This document shows, in pieces, positions 8,988 to 26,100 of a stretch of DNA of 38,022 nt. A program made the position numbers and the translations under genes. The DNA is taken from positions 1 through 38,022 of the forward strand of contig JAUNCA010000003.1 of the NCBI GenBank assembly GCA_030526775.1, written 5' to 3'. How positions within the stretch are numbered: position 1 is the first letter of the stretch; each line of letters opens with the position of its first letter. The notes under the pieces are model-generated. The model did not search any database, was not told where the DNA came from, and was given only the letters and a program-made list of their open reading frames with translations. Origin of the DNA: Coriobacteriia bacterium. GTDB taxonomy: Bacteria > Actinomycetota > Coriobacteriia > Coriobacteriales > Eggerthellaceae.

Positions 8988-9752
8988 TTACGAAGCCCGT
9001 TTCTTCCACTGCGCGTAAAGCTTTATGGTCTTGCCGGCTTTGGCAATGTTCTTCACCTTTTGCCTGTTCTTGAACCACTTGCCCGAGCCGTCCTTTTTCG
9101 TGTTCCAGCCAACGAACTTGTAGCCGGTGCGCTTGAAGGCGTTTTTCTTGAGCGCCTTCGTCTTGTTGCGCTTGATGGTCTGCTTGGACATCTTGCCCGT
9201 GCCGCCATTGGCCTTGAACCCCACTTGGTATGCCTTCGACTTATAGGCGGGGCGTACGTAGACGATCTTCGCGCCGGGAATAACCCATTCGCAGCGACAC
9301 TGTGCAACCTTGCTCGGGCTGCCCATGTTGCCGCTGATGCAGTTTTCAGCATCCATCATGATGCCCACGTGGTCGAAATTGAAGAACACGAGGTCGCCGG
9401 CTTTCGGCGTCGTAACGACCTTGCCGCCAGCGGAAATCGTCGCGCGATACAGCTCCGAGACCATGCCGTTGAAGGGAACGGCCTTGCTCTGGCCGACGCG
9501 CTTCGCGCAATCGGACACGAAGTCGGCGCACCAGCCCTCGGTGTAGCCCAAGCTGCCTTGGCCGAGCCCATCCTGCGCCATCGCGACTCCGAGCATGTCC
9601 TTGGCGCCGATGTACTTCGGTTTATAGCTGTTGAAGTTCTCGGATTTCGATTGCATCGCCCATGCTGGGTTGGGGGTGGCAAGCGCAAAGCCCAGGCAGA
9701 GCGCCAAGGCGAGCAGAAGGGCAATGGGAGCAGCGAGTGTTTTTGCGTGCAC
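8988..9752 (-). CDS. Secreted CHAP-type cell-wall hydrolase with Flg_new-like repeat
   Basis: This 254-residue exported protein has a signal peptide (residues 1 to about 32, with cleavage near PAWA). A CHAP/NlpC-like amidase domain has catalytic Cys75 in EGWCADFVSD and His128 in FFNFDHVGIM. A basic C-terminal region (about 175-250) reads like one Listeria-Bacteroides repeat: GFKANGGTG, then YKFVGWNTKKDGSGKW, then KLYAQW. Such repeats occur on surface-bound proteins and may attach it to the wall. The likely role is peptidoglycan cleavage outside the cell. The start is a GTG with AAAGGAG seven bases upstream. It converges with the alpha/beta-hydrolase gene, leaving 15 bases between the stops. 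Confidence 0.85.
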   Translation of the reverse strand: MHAKTLAAPIALLLALALCLGFALATPNPAWAMQSKSENFNSYKPKYIGAKDMLGVAMAQDGLGQGSLGYTEGWCADFVSDCAKRVGQSKAVPFNGMVSELYRATISAGGKVVTTPKAGDLVFFNFDHVGIMMDAENCISGNMGSPSKVAQCRCEWVIPGAKIVYVRPAYKSKAYQVGFKANGGTGKMSKQTIKRNKTKALKKNAFKRTGYKFVGWNTKKDGSGKWFKNRQKVKNIAKAGKTIKLYAQWKKRAS

Positions 9753-10011: not shown

Positions 10012-12321
10012 ATGGAATGTGTCCTATGCCATAAACAGCTTCCTGAATGGGCGGTGTTTTGCCCGGCGTGCAACACGCAGCAACCGGGAGCTGTCGAATG
10101 CGAAGACATCGAATACGCGGCATTTATTAGCTATCGGCATTCGCCGACCGATCAGAGTGTGGCTCTGGCCGTCCAGAAGGCCATCGAGCATTTCAAGCTT
10201 CCGCGTACGCTCTCCAGCCCCATACAAGTGGCGCCCGGTCGCAGGCTCGGGCGCGTTTTTCGCGATGAGGACGAGCTGCCCGCCGCCCATTCGCTGCCCG
10301 ACAGGATAACCGACGCCCTTATGAAGTCGCATTCGCTTATCGTGGTGTGCTCTCCCGAGATGCGGACAAGCATGTGGGTGAAGCGCGAAGTGGAAACGTT
10401 CGCTTACCTACATGGCTGCGATCGCATCTTCGCTGTCCTGGCGAGCGGGAATGAGCTGGAAAACATCCCCGAGATTCTACGGAGCAAGACGGTTATCGGC
10501 CCCGATGGCGCGCCTTGCATAATTGCAACCGAACCCCTCGCTGCCGATTTTCGCCTGGAATCGCATAATCGTATGTCCCTCGAGAAGCTGCGCATTATCG
10601 CTTCAGTTGCCGGTTGCGACTTCGATGACCTTCGCCAACGTAGCCAGAAGCGAAAGCGGAGAATAGCAGTCTCCATCACGGCGATGGTGGTTTTGATGGG
10701 CTGTGTGTTGGGAGTGTTTGGGCTGAGGGCTCACGAGGAACACCAGCGGGCGCTGTTTGCGGAATCGTATCGGCTGGCCATCCAATCTCAGCAACTGCTT
10801 GAACAGGGAGACCGCTACGGCGCCATCGAATCTGCGCTTGCGGCGCTTCCGAAATCCAGCGCCGACAACAGGGATTATGCACCGATAGCTGAGGACGCGC
10901 TGGAAGCGGCGTTGCAAGTGTATCCGAGCAACGCGGCTTGGCTGACCTGTTACTCGATAGAAACGGAATCGCCCATAGGAGATCGCATCGACGGCTCGTC
11001 CTTCTACGATGCATCTATCGTTGACGGAACATCCGATTCGGATTCGAACGATCTCAAAGCAAGCGCCATTACCGTCAACGAGAAGAAAGGCTGGTTTGCC
11101 TACGCACAGAAAGATGGCACGGTAGCCATTCACGATATCGAAACTGGCCGGAGAATCCAGACGTTCCGAATAGGCGAAGATGGGCAACCGATGACAGACT
11201 TCACATCATGCGATCTCGCCTTCGTAGGCAACACGCTTCTCTTACGCGCAAAGAATGCCACGCAGTCAAAACTTGTGGCCATAGAAGTTGACGGGGATTC
11301 CCTAACCTTCAAGTGGGCGGATGATACCGAAGCTACCAACCTCGTAGTTTCCGACCAGGGTCAACTTGCCATAGCGGGGCTTGCCTACGGCAGGACTTTG
11401 AAAGCCTGGCTCTTGTCTCCTGATGGCGGTAAGAAGCTTAGCGAGGTTACAGCTGAAATCGGAGATTTCGCGTACGATGCAACCGATCCCGAAGCAAGTT
11501 CCGGCGTATTTCACGAGAAGACCGGCGATCTCTACCTTGCCTTTGGTGGCCTTCTCGTACGCGTGGATGCGCAAGCCGGCACGCTCGGGGAATCGGGCGT
11601 TCAGAAGGCGCAACTTGCCAACAAGCACGTTGGCGCAGCTCAGTATGCGAACGGGCTCGTCATTGTCGCGTCTTATGGCGATGGGGACGAGGGCAAGAAC
11701 ATCCCCTATGCAATCGAGGCTTTCGACAGCTCATTGAAACGGATTTGGAAGAATACCGGTCAATATAGCGGGAGTAGTATCGTCCGTGAGGAAGACAATG
11801 GTCGCATCATCGTATATGGAAATCCGAACCTGTGTGGCGCAGCGCTCGATGACGGCTCTGTCATCAGCGTGAGCGTCGGAAGCCATATCATGCTAATTGA
11901 CACGCGTTCGGGCGAAGTGCTCTACGATGAGGCGAAATCGTGTACCGTGGTGGGGCTGAGCCCAAACACGCAAGATGCATCGAAGCTTGATGACATCGTC
12001 CTTGTCGTAGCGACCAGAGATGGAGCGGTGATGGGGGAGCTTCCGTTTATCGCGTCGGGGACCTACACCCGGAGCTTTACTACGATGCTTTCCGAACCGA
12101 TTCGCTGGGCGCGGGCTTGCTGTCCAAAATACACTCGCACGAACACCATAGGAATCGGCTTATACGTAATCGCACTGTCTGCCGAGAACGAAAGCAAAGT
12201 ATTTGTGTATCGGTCGAGCTTCATCGTGCCGAAAGATAAGGTTAAGACAGAGGGTGATTACAGCCTTGACGAGCTTCGGAGCCTTGCTCACGACACACTG
12301 AAAGCTGCCGGTAGAGAATAA
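10012..12321 (+). CDS. Zinc-ribbon/TIR-domain transmembrane protein with propeller-like C-terminus
   Basis: A 769-residue multidomain protein. Residues 3-20 form a CxxC...CxxC zinc ribbon (CVLC, CPAC). Residues about 33-150 are a TIR domain, with YAAFISYRHS, VFRDEDELP, LIVVCSP and SMWVKREVETF. Glu126 in WVKRE aligns by eye with the catalytic glutamate of SARM1-type TIR NADases (WVHKE). A basic run (KRKRR) precedes one transmembrane helix (about 218-239), predicting TIR inside and the rest outside. Residues 245-310 are helical (Ala/Leu-rich, like segments flanking beta-propellers), and about 330-740 show beta-rich repeats suggesting a propeller. The ATG at 10012 is preferred over the open frame from 9958 because TATAAT lies 6 bases upstream. 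It may be an extracellular sensor that triggers NAD+ cleavage or signalling; this is inference. Confidence 0.8.
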   Translation: MECVLCHKQLPEWAVFCPACNTQQPGAVECEDIEYAAFISYRHSPTDQSVALAVQKAIEHFKLPRTLSSPIQVAPGRRLGRVFRDEDELPAAHSLPDRITDALMKSHSLIVVCSPEMRTSMWVKREVETFAYLHGCDRIFAVLASGNELENIPEILRSKTVIGPDGAPCIIATEPLAADFRLESHNRMSLEKLRIIASVAGCDFDDLRQRSQKRKRRIAVSITAMVVLMGCVLGVFGLRAHEEHQRALFAESYRLAIQSQQLLEQGDRYGAIESALAALPKSSADNRDYAPIAEDALEAALQVYPSNAAWLTCYSIETESPIGDRIDGSSFYDASIVDGTSDSDSNDLKASAITVNEKKGWFAYAQKDGTVAIHDIETGRRIQTFRIGEDGQPMTDFTSCDLAFVGNTLLLRAKNATQSKLVAIEVDGDSLTFKWADDTEATNLVVSDQGQLAIAGLAYGRTLKAWLLSPDGGKKLSEVTAEIGDFAYDATDPEASSGVFHEKTGDLYLAFGGLLVRVDAQAGTLGESGVQKAQLANKHVGAAQYANGLVIVASYGDGDEGKNIPYAIEAFDSSLKRIWKNTGQYSGSSIVREEDNGRIIVYGNPNLCGAALDDGSVISVSVGSHIMLIDTRSGEVLYDEAKSCTVVGLSPNTQDASKLDDIVLVVATRDGAVMGELPFIASGTYTRSFTTMLSEPIRWARACCPKYTRTNTIGIGLYVIALSAENESKVFVYRSSFIVPKDKVKTEGDYSLDELRSLAHDTLKAAGRE

Positions 12322-12431
12322 GAGGCGTGCTCTTCTACTGCGGGGAGATTGTCACGCCGGCTACTGGTAATCCGCTACACTGTTGGGAAGGACACGGGCG
12401 GATTCGCGATGGGTCGGGGAGGTGGCTTGGT

Positions 12432-14327
12432 ATGGCGCTTTTCAAACCGAAGTGGATGACGGATAACCGCGCCAAGCTCGATAAGGCCGTGCAGGCTGTG
12501 GGAAAGATCGGCGACCAGGAGGCCTTGGCTGAGGCCGCCCTGCATGCGCCGCTGGAAGAAGTACGCATCGCCGCGGCGAAGAAGGCGGTCAGCCAAGACG
12601 TGCTCGAGCGCATCGTCGAGCAATCGGGCGAGAAGCCCGTCGTTCAGGCGGCGCTTCACAACTTGATGATGGCGTATGCCGGCAGGCTGAGGGAGTTGGA
12701 GCGCATCGCCTACCACCCGGACATGGCCAACGAGGACATCCTGGACATTTTGCAAGCGGTTGAACCCGAGGCACGGCAGCGCATTATTAAGGAACACGTC
12801 GATAACGAAGATCTTATGTTGCAGGTTGCGCTCCACGCGCTCGGAACGGGCACCCAGCGTGCGGCTGTGCGTCACATCTTTTCGTATGAAGCGTTGTTGC
12901 AGGTTGCGGAGATAACCGTCGGCGCAAAGACGCCGGCCTATGCCGCCAAGCGACTCGCGGAGCTGTATCCCGACAAGGCCAAGGAAGAACTGGAGCGCGC
13001 GATTGTGCGCCAGATTCGCAGCGGCTTCATCAAACAGGCGGTTGAGCTGCGCGAACAACTCGATGCACCACGTGATGCCAGGCGGTTCGAACGCGATGTG
13101 GTGGATGCGCTCATCTTCCAATGGCTTTCGATCCAAGGTGAATCCGCGCGTGAGGCGGCGCGGCTCATTCAGTCTCTGACTCGGCCGGATGCGCTGTTTA
13201 TGCTCGCCTGCAACCTGCGCTTTAAGGATGCGAAGAGCGTTGCCGAATCCCGGACCAAAAAGGGCCGTGAATCCCTGGCAACCGTGGTATTCAGCATGCT
13301 GGACAACGACCAGCTCGTGCGGCTTGTCGAGGACAATTCCCGGTTGGAGAAGGAGTGTACGCCCGATACGGTGCGAGCGATTCGGCAATGTGCACTCATC
13401 GAGCTTGCGAGCAGGTCCGATGGCCAACAGGTTCTGGAAGGTATCGTAGAGCAGCACCTCGACGAGCGCGATCCACGCGGGCTGCAGTTCATCACGGATG
13501 TGCCCTGGTTGCTTGCGGTTTCCAGGTCCGGGGTGAAACCGTCCGTGCAATCGCGTTTGTGCGACGTGGTGAAATCCGAGGACGCAATCGCCGACATCCT
13601 CATCAACGGCCTTGCGTCACACAAAGAAGTAGTCGCGGGCAGTCCGGCCAGCGCGAGTTGCGACAAAGACCGGGCGAATCTCGTGTCGCGTGTGAAAGAC
13701 AAGGTGATGCTGGAGAAGCTGTCGGTGGAGGCGCGCGATGTGTATATCCGCAGCGTGGCTGCGCGTCGGTTGCGGGAAAAACACGGCTGCGATGCAGTGC
13801 GGGTGTTGCATGACGTGTGCCAGTACTGCGGCGGCGCAGTGGCAGAGACCATGGCCTATGCGGGAACCACCGAGGAGCATCTGCGTTGGGATTGCCAGGG
13901 GTGCGGGCGCTTCCAGGACAAAACGCTGTTCGGACGTGGCTCATCCAACCAGATTTCGGGCGACTATTACGTGTTCGGCGAGCTCGGTGAATGGATGGAC
14001 GCCTCCTCGCTGGAGCCCGAACCGCCCGCTTCTCCCGCGAGCAACGGCGCGGAAGAAGCTGCTGCAGCTTCCGCTTCTGCCCCCGCAGCACAGCCTCCGG
14101 AGGCCGAGCTTACGGACAGCTACGAGTGCAAGGGTTGCGGCCACGTAGTCTGGTTCGGGCCAGATTCTGCCGATCCGTGCGTCTGCCCGAGCTGCGGTAC
14201 CGAGAATCACCGGTGGTTCACTTCGGGTAACGTCATTGACTACCGCGACTATTCGGCCGGCACGCGCTGGGACGAATGCTCCCGCTGTGGCGCCAGGAAG
14301 AACTACCGCACGGTGAACACGATGTAG
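12432..14327 (+). CDS. Helical-repeat (HEAT-like) protein with C-terminal zinc ribbons
   Basis: A 631-residue cytoplasmic-type protein. Residues 1 to about 455 are almost entirely alpha-helical with repeated Ala/Leu/Glu-rich helix pairs (ALAEAALHAPLEEVRIAAAKKAV, VQAALHNLM, LQVALHAL), like HEAT or HEAT-like repeats. Then comes a first zinc site (Cys463, Cys466, Cys488, Cys491), a Pro/Ala/Glu linker (about 525-558) and a second ribbon with CKGC at 566-569 and CPSC at about 585-588. A final CSRC at 616-619 ends the protein. The start at MALFKPKW is fixed by GGGGAGG nine bases upstream; the longer frame from 12327 lacks support. It lies 110 bases after the TIR gene and 9 before another zinc-ribbon gene. 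Likely a scaffold or nucleic-acid/protein-binding partner; function unknown. Confidence 0.7.
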   Translation: MALFKPKWMTDNRAKLDKAVQAVGKIGDQEALAEAALHAPLEEVRIAAAKKAVSQDVLERIVEQSGEKPVVQAALHNLMMAYAGRLRELERIAYHPDMANEDILDILQAVEPEARQRIIKEHVDNEDLMLQVALHALGTGTQRAAVRHIFSYEALLQVAEITVGAKTPAYAAKRLAELYPDKAKEELERAIVRQIRSGFIKQAVELREQLDAPRDARRFERDVVDALIFQWLSIQGESAREAARLIQSLTRPDALFMLACNLRFKDAKSVAESRTKKGRESLATVVFSMLDNDQLVRLVEDNSRLEKECTPDTVRAIRQCALIELASRSDGQQVLEGIVEQHLDERDPRGLQFITDVPWLLAVSRSGVKPSVQSRLCDVVKSEDAIADILINGLASHKEVVAGSPASASCDKDRANLVSRVKDKVMLEKLSVEARDVYIRSVAARRLREKHGCDAVRVLHDVCQYCGGAVAETMAYAGTTEEHLRWDCQGCGRFQDKTLFGRGSSNQISGDYYVFGELGEWMDASSLEPEPPASPASNGAEEAAAASASAPAAQPPEAELTDSYECKGCGHVVWFGPDSADPCVCPSCGTENHRWFTSGNVIDYRDYSAGTRWDECSRCGARKNYRTVNTM

Positions 14328-14336
14328 GAGGGCTGC

Positions 14337-15209
14337 ATGGCGTTAGCATGCAAGATAGCTGGCCACAAATGGAACGGTTGCAAATGCTCCCGCTGCGGTG
14401 AGAGACGCAATGAGGGACACGACTATCGCTTCGTCGAGGGTTCGTGCCGGAAGAGATGCCCTATCTGCTATGACTCGTTCAACGTGCCGCACGATTGGCA
14501 CGGGTGCGTATGTTCCCGGTGCGGAGAGAAGCGGGATTGCGACCATAGTTGGAATAAGGCGGAAGTGTACTCGGGTGGCGGCTCGAAGAAGCGGCTGTAC
14601 CATCTGAAGAAATGCAGTACGTGTGGCACGATTAAGCTTCCACCCCACACATTCACCCGAGTCGAAGGATGTCTCCGTCGGTGCGCAGAATGCGGATACG
14701 AAGGTGTTTACCACGAGTTCGAACGTGGGAAATGCCGCGACTGCGGTACAAACGAGAACGAGTTTTACTGCAAGCTCATCGCTTCCGGTGAGGTGAGCTA
14801 CTACGACAACGAAACCAAGCACGGCCAGATATATGTGAAGTACGGTGACCACGTGACCAGCGTTTCCGCTCGCGCGAAGCTTATCGTGGCGCTCGCTACC
14901 AGCGGGCGCAAGGGCCAGGACATTACTGTGCCAGTAGAAACGCTGCTCAAAGAGCTTTCCAAGACGGCGGCAGGCACGAGTAAAGAGGCTCAAGCCGCCA
15001 ATCGCGCCCTGCGCAAGATTGCTCTGAACGGCTCCATCTCCATCGGCTGGCGCGAGAAGGCATGTGCTGGTATCGCCGATTCCGCCCTGCTGGCGGAACC
15101 GGTTGCGGTCCTCAAACGCTGGCGCGAGGCTCACAAGCCCACGCAAGCCGATATCGACTACGAGAATGCCATGATAGCCATGGACAGCGGCCTCGGCCGT
15201 TCGGGATAA
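14337..15209 (+). CDS. Tandem zinc-ribbon protein, unknown function
   Basis: A 290-residue protein with a Cys-rich N-terminal half and a helical C-terminal half. Two near-identical units, GHKWNGCKCSRCGERR (9-24) and PHDWHGCVCSRCGEKR (51-66), are followed by CSTCG (93-97), CAECG (116-120) and CRDCG (133-137). These are likely several zinc ribbons in series. Residues about 175-290 are Ala/Lys/Glu-rich helices. GGAGGG precedes the ATG and the gap to the helical-repeat gene is only 9 bases, so the two are surely co-translated from one mRNA. The C-terminal CSRCGARKN of the upstream protein resembles the repeated CSRCGE(R/K)R unit here, hinting at shared ancestry or binding partner. No signal peptide or transmembrane helix. 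Confidence 0.7.
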   Translation: MALACKIAGHKWNGCKCSRCGERRNEGHDYRFVEGSCRKRCPICYDSFNVPHDWHGCVCSRCGEKRDCDHSWNKAEVYSGGGSKKRLYHLKKCSTCGTIKLPPHTFTRVEGCLRRCAECGYEGVYHEFERGKCRDCGTNENEFYCKLIASGEVSYYDNETKHGQIYVKYGDHVTSVSARAKLIVALATSGRKGQDITVPVETLLKELSKTAAGTSKEAQAANRALRKIALNGSISIGWREKACAGIADSALLAEPVAVLKRWREAHKPTQADIDYENAMIAMDSGLGRSG

Positions 15210-15262: not shown

Positions 15263-16282
15263 GTGGAGGATTACATCATTAGAAGCATGAGGGTGGAAGA
15301 ATACCCGCTGTTGGAGGAATTCCTCTACCAGGCCATTTACGTTCCCGAGGGGTTCGAGGGGGAAGTCCCGCGCAACGTGATTTACGACGACCCGAAGTGC
15401 CGGGCGGCGTTCGAGGACTTCGGGGAACTCCCGGACGACCGCGCACTGGTTGCCGAGCGCGACGGGGAAATGGTTGCCGCGTGTTGGGTGCGCACGACCG
15501 ATGAATATGGGCATATCGACGATGCGACGCCATCGTTCTCGATTTCCGCATACCGGGAGCATCGGGGAAAAGGTGTGGGAACGGCCCTGATGAACCGCAT
15601 GCTCGACGAGCTGTTCGAAGAAGGATATGCGCGTACGTCGCTATCGGTGCAGAAGGAGAATCCGGCGGTGAGGTTGTACCTGCGGCTGGGCTTCCGCATC
15701 GTCGGAAACGGCGCCGACGATACCGAGTGGCTGATGGTTTGCCCGCTGAACGAACCGTTTACCGTTATCGAAACCGACCGCTTAATTCTACGGCCTTGGC
15801 TTGCATCGGACGCCGAGCGCCTCTATGCGCTGGCAAGCGATTCCGAGGTGGGACCGCGTGCCGGTTGGCCGGCGCATGCCAGCATCCAGGAAAGCGCCCT
15901 CATAATCGCAACGGTGTTTGCTGCGCCGGATACCTATGCAGTCGTGTTGCGCGAAACGGGCAATATCATTGGGTGTGCCGGCTTCAACGAGGGTGATGCC
16001 GCGAACATGCCGCTTGCGAAAGACGAGCTTGAGCTGGGCTATTGGATAGGAAGACCCTATTGGGGGCGTGGCTACGCCACAGAGGCTGCCGGCGCCCTAA
16101 TTAGACGCGGGTTTGGCGAGTTGGAGCTCTCTTGCATCCGCGCTGCCTATTACGATGGCAACGACCAGTCGAGCCGCGTGCTTGAGAAGCTGGGCTTCCG
16201 GTACGAGCGCACGGAGCACGATGTGGATTGCCCGTTGCTTGGCGAGCGCCGCACTGAGCATTTCGTCTACCTTCCCGGCTAA
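15263..16282 (+). CDS. Double GNAT-family N-acetyltransferase
   Basis: A 339-residue fusion of two acetyl-CoA-dependent GNAT domains. The first (about 1-155) has the acetyl-CoA loop YREHRGKGVGTALMNRML and the NPAVRLYLRLGFRIVG helix. The second (about 160-335) is RimJ/RimL-like, with TDRLILRPW, LGYWIGRPYWGRGYATEAA and NDQSSRVLEKLGFRYER. Both cores look intact, so both may be active; substrates are unknown, although the second type often acts on N-terminal amines or small molecules. The GTG at 15263 is favoured because AAAGGG lies 7 bases before it, whereas the TTG at 15218 has no site. It follows the zinc-ribbon genes by 53 bases and may share their transcript. It converges with the ABC exporter genes. 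Confidence 0.85.
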   Translation: MEDYIIRSMRVEEYPLLEEFLYQAIYVPEGFEGEVPRNVIYDDPKCRAAFEDFGELPDDRALVAERDGEMVAACWVRTTDEYGHIDDATPSFSISAYREHRGKGVGTALMNRMLDELFEEGYARTSLSVQKENPAVRLYLRLGFRIVGNGADDTEWLMVCPLNEPFTVIETDRLILRPWLASDAERLYALASDSEVGPRAGWPAHASIQESALIIATVFAAPDTYAVVLRETGNIIGCAGFNEGDAANMPLAKDELELGYWIGRPYWGRGYATEAAGALIRRGFGELELSCIRAAYYDGNDQSSRVLEKLGFRYERTEHDVDCPLLGERRTEHFVYLPG

Positions 16283-25215: not shown

Positions 25216-26100
25216 ATGGGGTTCTTCAAGTCGATATGGTCGTCCGGGAAGAAACGAAGTGCCGAGAAGAAAGAAACGACTCAGGAGCCTGACGTTTCCG
25301 TCGATAAGATAACCGACATCGCTAAGCTGTCCGAAATCGCGATTGCGACAGCCGATAAGCGCAGACTCGAAGGAAAGCGCTTCTTCGATTTCGAAGGCTT
25401 CGACCGGACGATGCGGGATATCGGTCGTGCGGCGTGCCAATCGGACGTGGACAAGGCAAGAATCGGAGCGCTTATCGAATCGGCTGTTCACGGTTGGGAT
25501 TTCATGTTCATCGCGCGCAAAACCGGGAGCGAGTATCTTGCGAGGGAGACCAAGGAATGCTCCGAGGTCTTACGGGAACTGGAAAGCGAGTTGCCTGCGG
25601 ATCCTAAAGGGCAGCGTGAATACATCGATTCAATTGACACGCGTGTTGAGTACACCGGCCTGCACTCCACCAAGTGGAAGCTGATCGGCTGCTGCCTGCT
25701 TATAGACGCCTTGCGCCCCTATGCGTATGACATCGCCCAAGCCGTGGAAACGATGAGCTTGTACTGCGACCTGCGGGCCTACGGGGCCAGTCCGGGCAGC
25801 AAGAGCGAAGGTCTAGCCGCGCACGAGCGGAAGTGCGAAGCCTGGAAGGAATCGGCGGAGCGCCTTATCGAGGTGGCGCAGCGCGAGCCGGAGACCCTGT
25901 ATCCGGTATGGGGCAAGCTGAAAAAAGCCATCGATGGCGCAGAGACGCAGGTGAAGGAGAAAAAGCAAGTAGGCGTGAAGACTACCAATCGGCGGGTTTC
26001 CCCGGATGCCCCGCAAGACTGGACCGAGAAGGTGACCGTGCCGGTATACGAAGACGTCACCGAGAAGAAACCGATGGGATTGCATTTTCCGGCCGAGTAG
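25216..26100 (+). CDS. Unrecognised cytoplasmic protein
   Basis: A 294-residue protein with no recognised family. The N-terminus is basic and charged (MGFFKSIWSSGKKRSAEKKE). The middle is mostly helical and includes a moderately hydrophobic stretch, LIGCCLLIDALRPYAYDI (about 157-174), too weak for a sure membrane helix. The tail (about 255-294) is rich in Lys, Val, Pro and Glu, likely flexible (SPDAPQDWTEKVTVPVYEDV). GAGGAGG precedes the ATG by 6-7 bases. It begins a three-gene plus-strand series with a 92-base gap to the next gene; joint function is possible but only positional. Confidence 0.6.
   Translation: MGFFKSIWSSGKKRSAEKKETTQEPDVSVDKITDIAKLSEIAIATADKRRLEGKRFFDFEGFDRTMRDIGRAACQSDVDKARIGALIESAVHGWDFMFIARKTGSEYLARETKECSEVLRELESELPADPKGQREYIDSIDTRVEYTGLHSTKWKLIGCCLLIDALRPYAYDIAQAVETMSLYCDLRAYGASPGSKSEGLAAHERKCEAWKESAERLIEVAQREPETLYPVWGKLKKAIDGAETQVKEKKQVGVKTTNRRVSPDAPQDWTEKVTVPVYEDVTEKKPMGLHFPAE

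What the first reader, a model, noticed from the sequence alone, without database searches (positions are those of the whole stretch)
10012..15209. Candidate new system: TIR receptor, helical-repeat zinc-ribbon protein and tandem zinc-ribbon protein
Three consecutive same-strand genes of unknown role all carry CxxC zinc ribbons, and the last two are 9 bases apart with similar CSRCG units. A TIR sensor-effector, a large HEAT-like scaffold and a multi-ribbon protein could form one signalling or defence complex. The double GNAT gene follows on the same strand and might be part of it. Function is inferred only from gene order and domains.
Basis: inference. Interest (0 to 1): 0.68.

Follow-up and report, generated by a model that had tools for sequence, protein, structure and literature searches.

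The report
TIR gene beside helical zinc-ribbon pair
A gut-type bacterium carries a membrane immune-type sensor gene next to two zinc-binding helical-repeat genes; the two zinc genes look like true partners, but in related bacteria the sensor's usual neighbour is a different gene, so the three-gene "system" is at best a local variant.

Summary
The three same-strand genes are real: a TIR-membrane-propeller protein (10012-12321), a helical-repeat/zinc-ribbon protein (12432-14327) and a tandem zinc-ribbon/helical protein (14337-15209). They form two associations, not one conserved system. (1) Zinc-ribbon-repeat and HEATn genes recur side by side or fused across phyla: 9 of 54 zinc-ribbon loci, 2 of them as one ORF. 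(2) The TIR family is rarely beside them: 4 of 48 TIR loci. Its recurrent neighbour in Coriobacteriia is a RyR-domain gene: 25 of 48 TIR loci, 0 of 88 others; 30 of 43 TIR-positive genomes against 16 of 353. In the window's TIR clade 12 of 14 members with visible downstream sequence have the RyR-type gene next door; the window is an exception, and the zinc pair fills that slot. TIR-zinc linkage is inconclusive: 2 of 11 genomes (P=0.07), or 4 of 13 with two added (P=0.0006, mostly sister genera). Nothing ties in the GNAT gene.

The parts
10012..12321 (+). TIR-TM-propeller protein, 769 aa (P0001)
   Evidence: Pfam ThsB_TIR/TIR_2 at residues 38-145; family alignment A3; nested in a TIR tree with Coriobacteriia homologues
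10018..10071 (+). N-terminal CxxC...CxxC zinc ribbon of the TIR protein
   Evidence: weak Zn_Ribbon_1 match residues 3-22, E=0.029; same ribbon in paralogues L045, L047, L048
10108..10680 (+). TIR domain; WxxxE motif W122/E126
   Evidence: A5; W and E present in 50 of 50 TIR sequences; that this Glu is the NADase residue is recalled
10672..10743 (+). presumed single membrane helix after a basic stretch (approximate)
   Evidence: read from the sequence; inference, no predictor run
10909..12231 (+). beta-propeller-like region (approximate)
   Evidence: ANAPC4_WD40 E=0.003, below cut-off; aligns with other propeller-type TIR proteins
12432..14327 (+). helical-repeat + zinc-ribbon protein, 631 aa (P0002)
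   Evidence: family motif MGLFxPxWMT, A4; AF2 model
12432..13805 (+). HEAT/ARM-like helical part of P0002
   Evidence: AF2: residues 13-458 helical, confident for about 1-80; weak Foldseek matches to ARM/HEAT proteins, none E<0.001
13818..14324 (+). C-terminal CxxC pairs of P0002
   Evidence: sequence; residues 563-625 44% identical to a second HEATn/ribbon protein of the same genome
14337..15209 (+). tandem zinc-ribbon + helical protein, 290 aa (P0003)
   Evidence: A6, largely invariant Cys/His in 8 homologues; AF2 pLDDT 84
15263..16282 (+). double GNAT acetyltransferase, next gene; not shown to belong
   Evidence: Pfam Acetyltransf_1 and _3; only 2 of 106 near neighbours of the families match Acetyltransf_1
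25216..26100 (+). another relative of the MGLFxPxW family, 294 aa
   Evidence: 43% identity over 264 aa to L070:3127-4245, whose N-terminus is the HEATn domain

Best explanation
Two modules lie end to end. Module 1 is a membrane TIR receptor: a cytosolic zinc ribbon and TIR domain, one membrane helix, and a propeller outside the membrane that senses a ligand; on activation the TIR domain cleaves NAD+ or makes an ADP-ribose-type signal. In its relatives a RyR-domain protein encoded next door most likely reads, holds or destroys that signal. Module 2 is a pair of cytosolic helical-repeat/zinc-ribbon proteins (P0002, P0003) that most likely bind each other as an adaptor or scaffold complex. In this genome module 2 sits in the slot where the RyR gene normally lies, probably on the same transcript; whether it has become a TIR partner or merely landed in the same accessory island is open, and I lean to no proven functional link. 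Shown by computation: gene order, recurrence of the zinc/HEATn pair, the TIR-RyR association, absence of RyR from the window. Inferred: NADase activity, topology, complex formation, signal reading.
For: Zinc-ribbon/HEATn pair: HEATn ORFs in 9 of 54 zinc-ribbon loci from a whole-collection scan, with ORF fusions in Christensenella and Methanimicrococcus. TIR-RyR: 25 of 48 TIR loci, 0 of 88 other loci; 30 of 43 TIR genomes against 16 of 353 (Fisher 2e-23); 21 of 49 RyR loci within 10 kb of a TIR, about 0.34 expected. In the short-TIR clade 12 of 14 loci with visible downstream sequence have the RyR-type gene. G000 has its RyR gene directly behind the C-terminal part of another TIR-propeller gene. 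The two other sampled genomes of the genus lack the TIR, HEATn and zinc families, and in G129 homologues of the CHAP-like and ABC genes that flank the block here lie close together without it. RyR-domain (PF02026) phage proteins bind or hydrolyse 2'/3'cADPR (PMC13232231, passages).
Against: 4 of 13 genomes holding both families have them within 10 kb, against 0.53 expected (P=0.0006), which speaks for some TIR-zinc link or a shared island. HEATn and TIR also co-occur by genome: 11 of 20 HEATn genomes have TIR, 32 of 376 without HEATn (P=6e-7). 45 of 54 zinc-ribbon loci show no HEATn gene (some cut by contig ends), so the pair is not obligatory. 13 of 43 TIR genomes show no RyR match, and 12 of the 33 RyR loci in TIR-positive genomes are not within 10 kb of a TIR on the same contig. 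No activity has been measured for any of these proteins.
Confidence: 0.55

Rival explanations
1. One reading: one three-gene signalling or defence complex in which the TIR receptor signals through the helical/zinc-ribbon pair.
For: Same strand, 110- and 9-base gaps, no terminator-like site between; TIR and HEATn/zinc genes within 10 kb also in G121, G122 and G353; 4 of 13 genomes, P=0.0006; a HEATn-LRV gene lies 50 bases from a DUF4062-NACHT-WD40 gene in G115; the block is absent in G129 between homologues of its flanks.
Against: 44 of 48 TIR loci lack both families; in the other three the genes are divergent or convergent and 0.8-4.3 kb apart; P=0.07 in the unselected sample; three of the four linked genomes are of two genera, g1 and g45; the usual TIR neighbour is RyR.
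Confidence: 0.22
2. Island coincidence: three accessory genes gathered at one spot with no functional connection, even between P0002 and P0003 beyond a shared kind of fold.
For: All are patchy accessory genes: TIR 43, HEATn 20, zinc family 9 of 396 genomes; in G122 a P0003 homologue lies near relaxase-like ORFs (my reading).
Against: The zinc-ribbon/HEATn pairing recurs in unrelated phyla and as ORF fusions.
Confidence: 0.2
3. The pair is a fast-diversifying conflict family (toxin, immunity or antigen-like arrays) unrelated to TIR signalling.
For: Tandem paralogue arrays: three HEATn genes in L106, several in L104, two zinc genes in L037; variable tails (DUF6273, ankyrin, LRV, HEAT); Fic genes beside three g45 loci.
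Against: No toxin domain in P0002 or P0003; PADLOC matches near the genes do not clearly exceed those farther off.
Confidence: 0.12

Closest known systems
Thoeris ThsB-type TIR proteins (PF08937)
   Same: TIR domain over the ThsB_TIR cut-off; invariant WxxxE
   Different: Fused to a membrane helix and propeller; PADLOC ThsB only E=0.011; no ThsA-like match in the next two genes
TIR-propeller genes beside RyR-domain (PF02026) genes in Coriobacteriia (found here)
   Same: Same TIR architecture and clade
   Different: The window lacks the RyR-type gene; P0002/P0003 lie there instead
RyDEP phage RyR-domain proteins (PMC13232231; passages read)
   Same: Domain family PF02026, seen in neighbours of related TIR genes
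   Different: Phage anti-defence proteins; the bacterial ones are about 500-770 aa host genes beside TIR genes and untested
DUF4062-NACHT-WD40 STAND-like protein next to a HEATn-LRV gene (L040)
   Same: HEATn family gene adjacent to a large signalling protein
   Different: No NTPase domain in the window's three genes
Zinc-ribbon repeat proteins (HxWxGCKCxRCGxxR) fused to HEAT, ankyrin or DUF6273
   Same: Same repeat unit as P0003
   Different: P0003 has a helical tail without a Pfam match, seen in 6 of the 54 scanned loci, all Coriobacteriia

Membership tests
Thoeris | TIR (ThsB) gene | tested here: inconclusive
   PF08937 24.6 bits over the cut-off 21.2; PADLOC ThsB E=0.011
Thoeris | adjacent ThsA effector | tested here: not met
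   P0002 and P0003 give no PADLOC match and no effector-like Pfam match
CBASS TIR-SAVED | SAVED domain fused to TIR, with a CD-NTase gene | tested here: not met
   the model matched only in positions 41-104 of 404; no CD-NTase match in the neighbouring genes scanned
TIR-RyR neighbour pair | TIR-TM-propeller protein of the same family | tested here: met
   alignment and tree
TIR-RyR neighbour pair | RyR-type gene adjacent | tested here: not met
   no RyR found in the window and no match to the RyR-type protein in window ORFs
STAND/NLR-like | NACHT or other STAND NTPase | tested here: not met
   no such match in the three proteins
Zinc-ribbon repeat + HEATn pair (described here) | tandem CxxC-H repeat gene next to or fused with a HEATn/DQ-HEAT gene, same strand | tested here: met
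   window 12432-15209; L050, L064, L066, L068, L070, and fused L055, L056
TIR NADase | NAD+ cleavage | not testable with these tools
   only the WxxxE motif was checked

The most novel reading that the evidence does not exclude
Coriobacteriia use a membrane TIR-propeller receptor with a RyR-domain partner that reads or clears its ADP-ribose-type signal, a native bacterial counterpart of the phage RyDEP trick, and at this locus the RyR partner has been exchanged for a helical/zinc-ribbon pair that serves as an alternative read-out of the same receptor.
Probability: 0.17. Interest if true: 0.78.

Novelty: new variant of a known kind. Interest (0 to 1): 0.5.

Why it matters
It separates a real but unnamed protein pair (zinc-ribbon repeat + HEATn) from a third gene whose link is unproven, and shows that the TIR gene belongs to a family whose consistent neighbour is a RyR-domain protein. 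Since phage RyR-domain proteins bind or cut cyclic ADP-ribose signals, TIR-RyR pairs make it directly testable whether bacteria themselves use RyR domains to read or switch off TIR signals.

Tried and rejected
GNAT as fourth member: rejected for lack of recurrence; 2 of 106 near neighbours match Acetyltransf_1, and the two sampled relatives of the genus have only weak GNAT matches.

Defence-island test: neighbours within 1.5 kb against 4.5-9 kb. The script listed 124 near and 148 far genes; I gave 106 of the 124 near, and 96 of 124 drawn from the 148 far. PADLOC matches occur in both sets (176 against 99 families at E<=1e-5; top counts 4 and 2 members; by my reading three of the four Fic hits are one gene type in related species), so I claim no enrichment. 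Genes of under 110 aa, with X, or not in register were dropped.

Foldseek on both models: no match below E=0.001. Phage and plasmid collections: no match to P0003 at E<=0.001. The empty site in G128 was rearranged and cut by a contig end; G129 gave partial synteny.

Rows dropped: seven duplicate loci (L050-L053, L103, L123, L126) and the short loci L001-L031 were left out of the neighbourhood counts. L050 (=L033) was a row of the HEATn model, so it matches by construction; L060, L066, L068 and L070 were later rows of A4 but were first found by the A2-based model.

Literature: seven searches listed no paper on TIR-RyR gene pairs in bacteria or on this zinc-ribbon/HEATn pair; the library lacks most subscription papers, and earlier comparative work on nucleotide-centred conflict systems that I recall may mention RyR domains with TIR. 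PMC13232231 was read in passages only; the others were seen as search listings.

Full report
Setting. The window is a whole contig (C232) of a 2.2-Mb draft genome in 254 contigs. Its nearest named matches are Coriobacteriales, Coriobacteriaceae and Eggerthellaceae metagenome bins. The three genes lie between a CHAP-like gene on the - strand (8988-9752) and a double GNAT gene on the + strand, followed by an ABC pair on the - strand.

Anatomy. P0001 (10012-12321) has an N-terminal CxxC/CxxC ribbon, a TIR domain (ThsB_TIR above cut-off, TIR_2 just under), a basic stretch and one hydrophobic helix, then a propeller-like region with only a weak WD40 match. The W and E of a WxxxE motif are present in 50 of 50 TIR sequences from the fetched loci; that this Glu is the NADase residue is recalled. 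From the basic stretch before the helix I infer TIR inside, propeller outside. P0002 (12432-14327) begins with the family motif MGLFxPxWMT, is predicted helical over residues 13-458 with confidence only for about the first 80, and ends in CxxC pairs. P0003 (14337-15209) has six CxxC units with largely invariant Cys/His in eight homologues and, in a fairly confident model (pLDDT 84), a helical-repeat tail. So P0002 is helices-then-ribbons and P0003 ribbons-then-helices.

The zinc-ribbon/HEATn pair. A scan of the 84,980-species collection with the P0003 family gave 54 loci in many phyla. With the HEATn model cut from A2, 8 of 54 loci held a HEATn ORF; with the A4 model 9 of 54: next door on the same strand in L050, L064, L066, L068 and L070, a little farther in L060, weakly in L088, and in the same ORF in L055 (Christensenella) and L056 (Methanimicrococcus; Pfam HEAT). 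The order differs (ribbon first in most, HEATn first in the window and L068). Within Coriobacteriia HEATn occurs in 20 of 396 genomes and the P0003 family in 9 of 396. Three HEATn genes of another subfamily have a different CxxC protein just before them (L032, L107, L109). The pairing is therefore recurrent, though not obligatory.

The TIR gene's company. In the same 396-genome sample the TIR family occurs in 43. Of 48 fetched TIR loci only four also hold a HEATn or zinc-ribbon gene: the window, L035 (G122), L038 (G121) and L114 (G353); in the last three the genes are divergent or convergent. Linkage within 10 kb: 2 of 11 genomes with both, 0.49 expected, P=0.07; adding the two genomes known from the family search, 4 of 13, 0.53 expected, P=0.0006. 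The second figure rests on three genomes of two genera (g1, g45) and on a random-placement model that ignores islands. By genome, TIR and HEATn co-occur more than expected (11 of 20 against 32 of 376, P=6e-7), without correction for descent.

An unexpected partner. Clustering all ORFs of 136 loci showed a protein of about 510 aa beside many TIR genes; Pfam found a C-terminal RyR domain (PF02026, E=9e-11) in L143:9008-10528. An iterated search started from a RyR gene of this genome found RyR in 25 of 48 TIR loci, in 16 of the 25 within 350 bases of the TIR gene, and in 0 of 88 loci without TIR. A separate Pfam search of the 396-genome sample: RyR in 46; 30 of 43 TIR-positive genomes have it against 16 of 353 TIR-negative; 21 of 49 RyR loci lie within 10 kb of a TIR, about 0.34 expected. 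In a TIR-domain tree the window protein nests among the shorter, single-propeller TIRs. Of that clade, L153, L135, L145, L164, L143, L141, L150, L151 and L148 have the RyR gene; L038 and L134 have the N-terminal part of the same protein type, cut by the contig end; and G000's other short TIR copy, whose C-terminal part lies on contig C8, is followed by it (I count this with the C228 N-terminal fragment as one copy, which is unproven). That makes 12 of 14 with visible downstream sequence (11 of 13 without that copy); the exceptions are the window and L158 (899 bases visible). In L146 and L035 the TIR gene itself runs off the contig.

How it may work. RyR-domain proteins of phages bind, and in some cases hydrolyse, 2'cADPR and 3'cADPR, products of TIR proteins of Thoeris systems (PMC13232231, passages). 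The simplest reading of the TIR-RyR association is that the host RyR protein reads, buffers or clears the TIR product. The window locus departs from this: the slot behind the TIR gene holds the zinc-ribbon/HEATn pair. G128 and G129, the only other sampled members of the genus, lack the TIR, HEATn and zinc families, and in G129 homologues of the CHAP-like gene and the ABC pair are close neighbours without the block, in a rearranged order. A joint or stepwise gain of the block fits; it does not show that the genes work together.

Verdict. The pair P0002-P0003 is supported as a unit; its inclusion with TIR in one system is possible but unproven; the GNAT gene has no support. The most useful lead is the TIR-RyR association, which puts this TIR gene into a testable signalling context. 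I found no paper on either in the seven searches made, which cover only the held open library.

Noticed in passing
L143:9008-10528 and 24 other TIR loci; G000 C8 = L175:39-1544: RyR-domain (PF02026) genes are recurrent neighbours of TIR-propeller genes in Coriobacteriia, in two forms: a ~510-aa protein and a ~630-770-aa protein with a hydrophobic N-terminal part.
   Followed up: yes
window 25216-26100: A second relative of the MGLFxPxW mosaic family in the same contig, 43% identical over 264 aa to L070:3127-4245.
   Followed up: partly
L034, L060, L061, L070: A helix-turn-helix plus Ser/Thr-kinase gene pair lies in the same loci as zinc-ribbon/HEATn genes in both Clostridia and Coriobacteriia.
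   Followed up: partly
L040:2917-10279: A HEATn gene with LRV repeats lies 50 bases from a 1765-aa DUF4062-NACHT-WD40 protein on the same strand.
   Followed up: no
L035, L037, L038: The same Fic-domain gene type lies beside zinc-ribbon or HEATn genes in three species of genus g45.
   Followed up: no
L032:4237-4974, L107:8044-8748, L109:10151-11005: A conserved CxxC protein (about 235-285 aa) precedes HEATn genes of another subfamily, including two copies in this genome.
   Followed up: no
L104, L106, L037: Tandem arrays of diverged HEATn or zinc-ribbon paralogues, suggesting rapid turnover.
   Followed up: no
L166, L167: Two TIR-propeller genes in tandem in G410 and G386.
   Followed up: no
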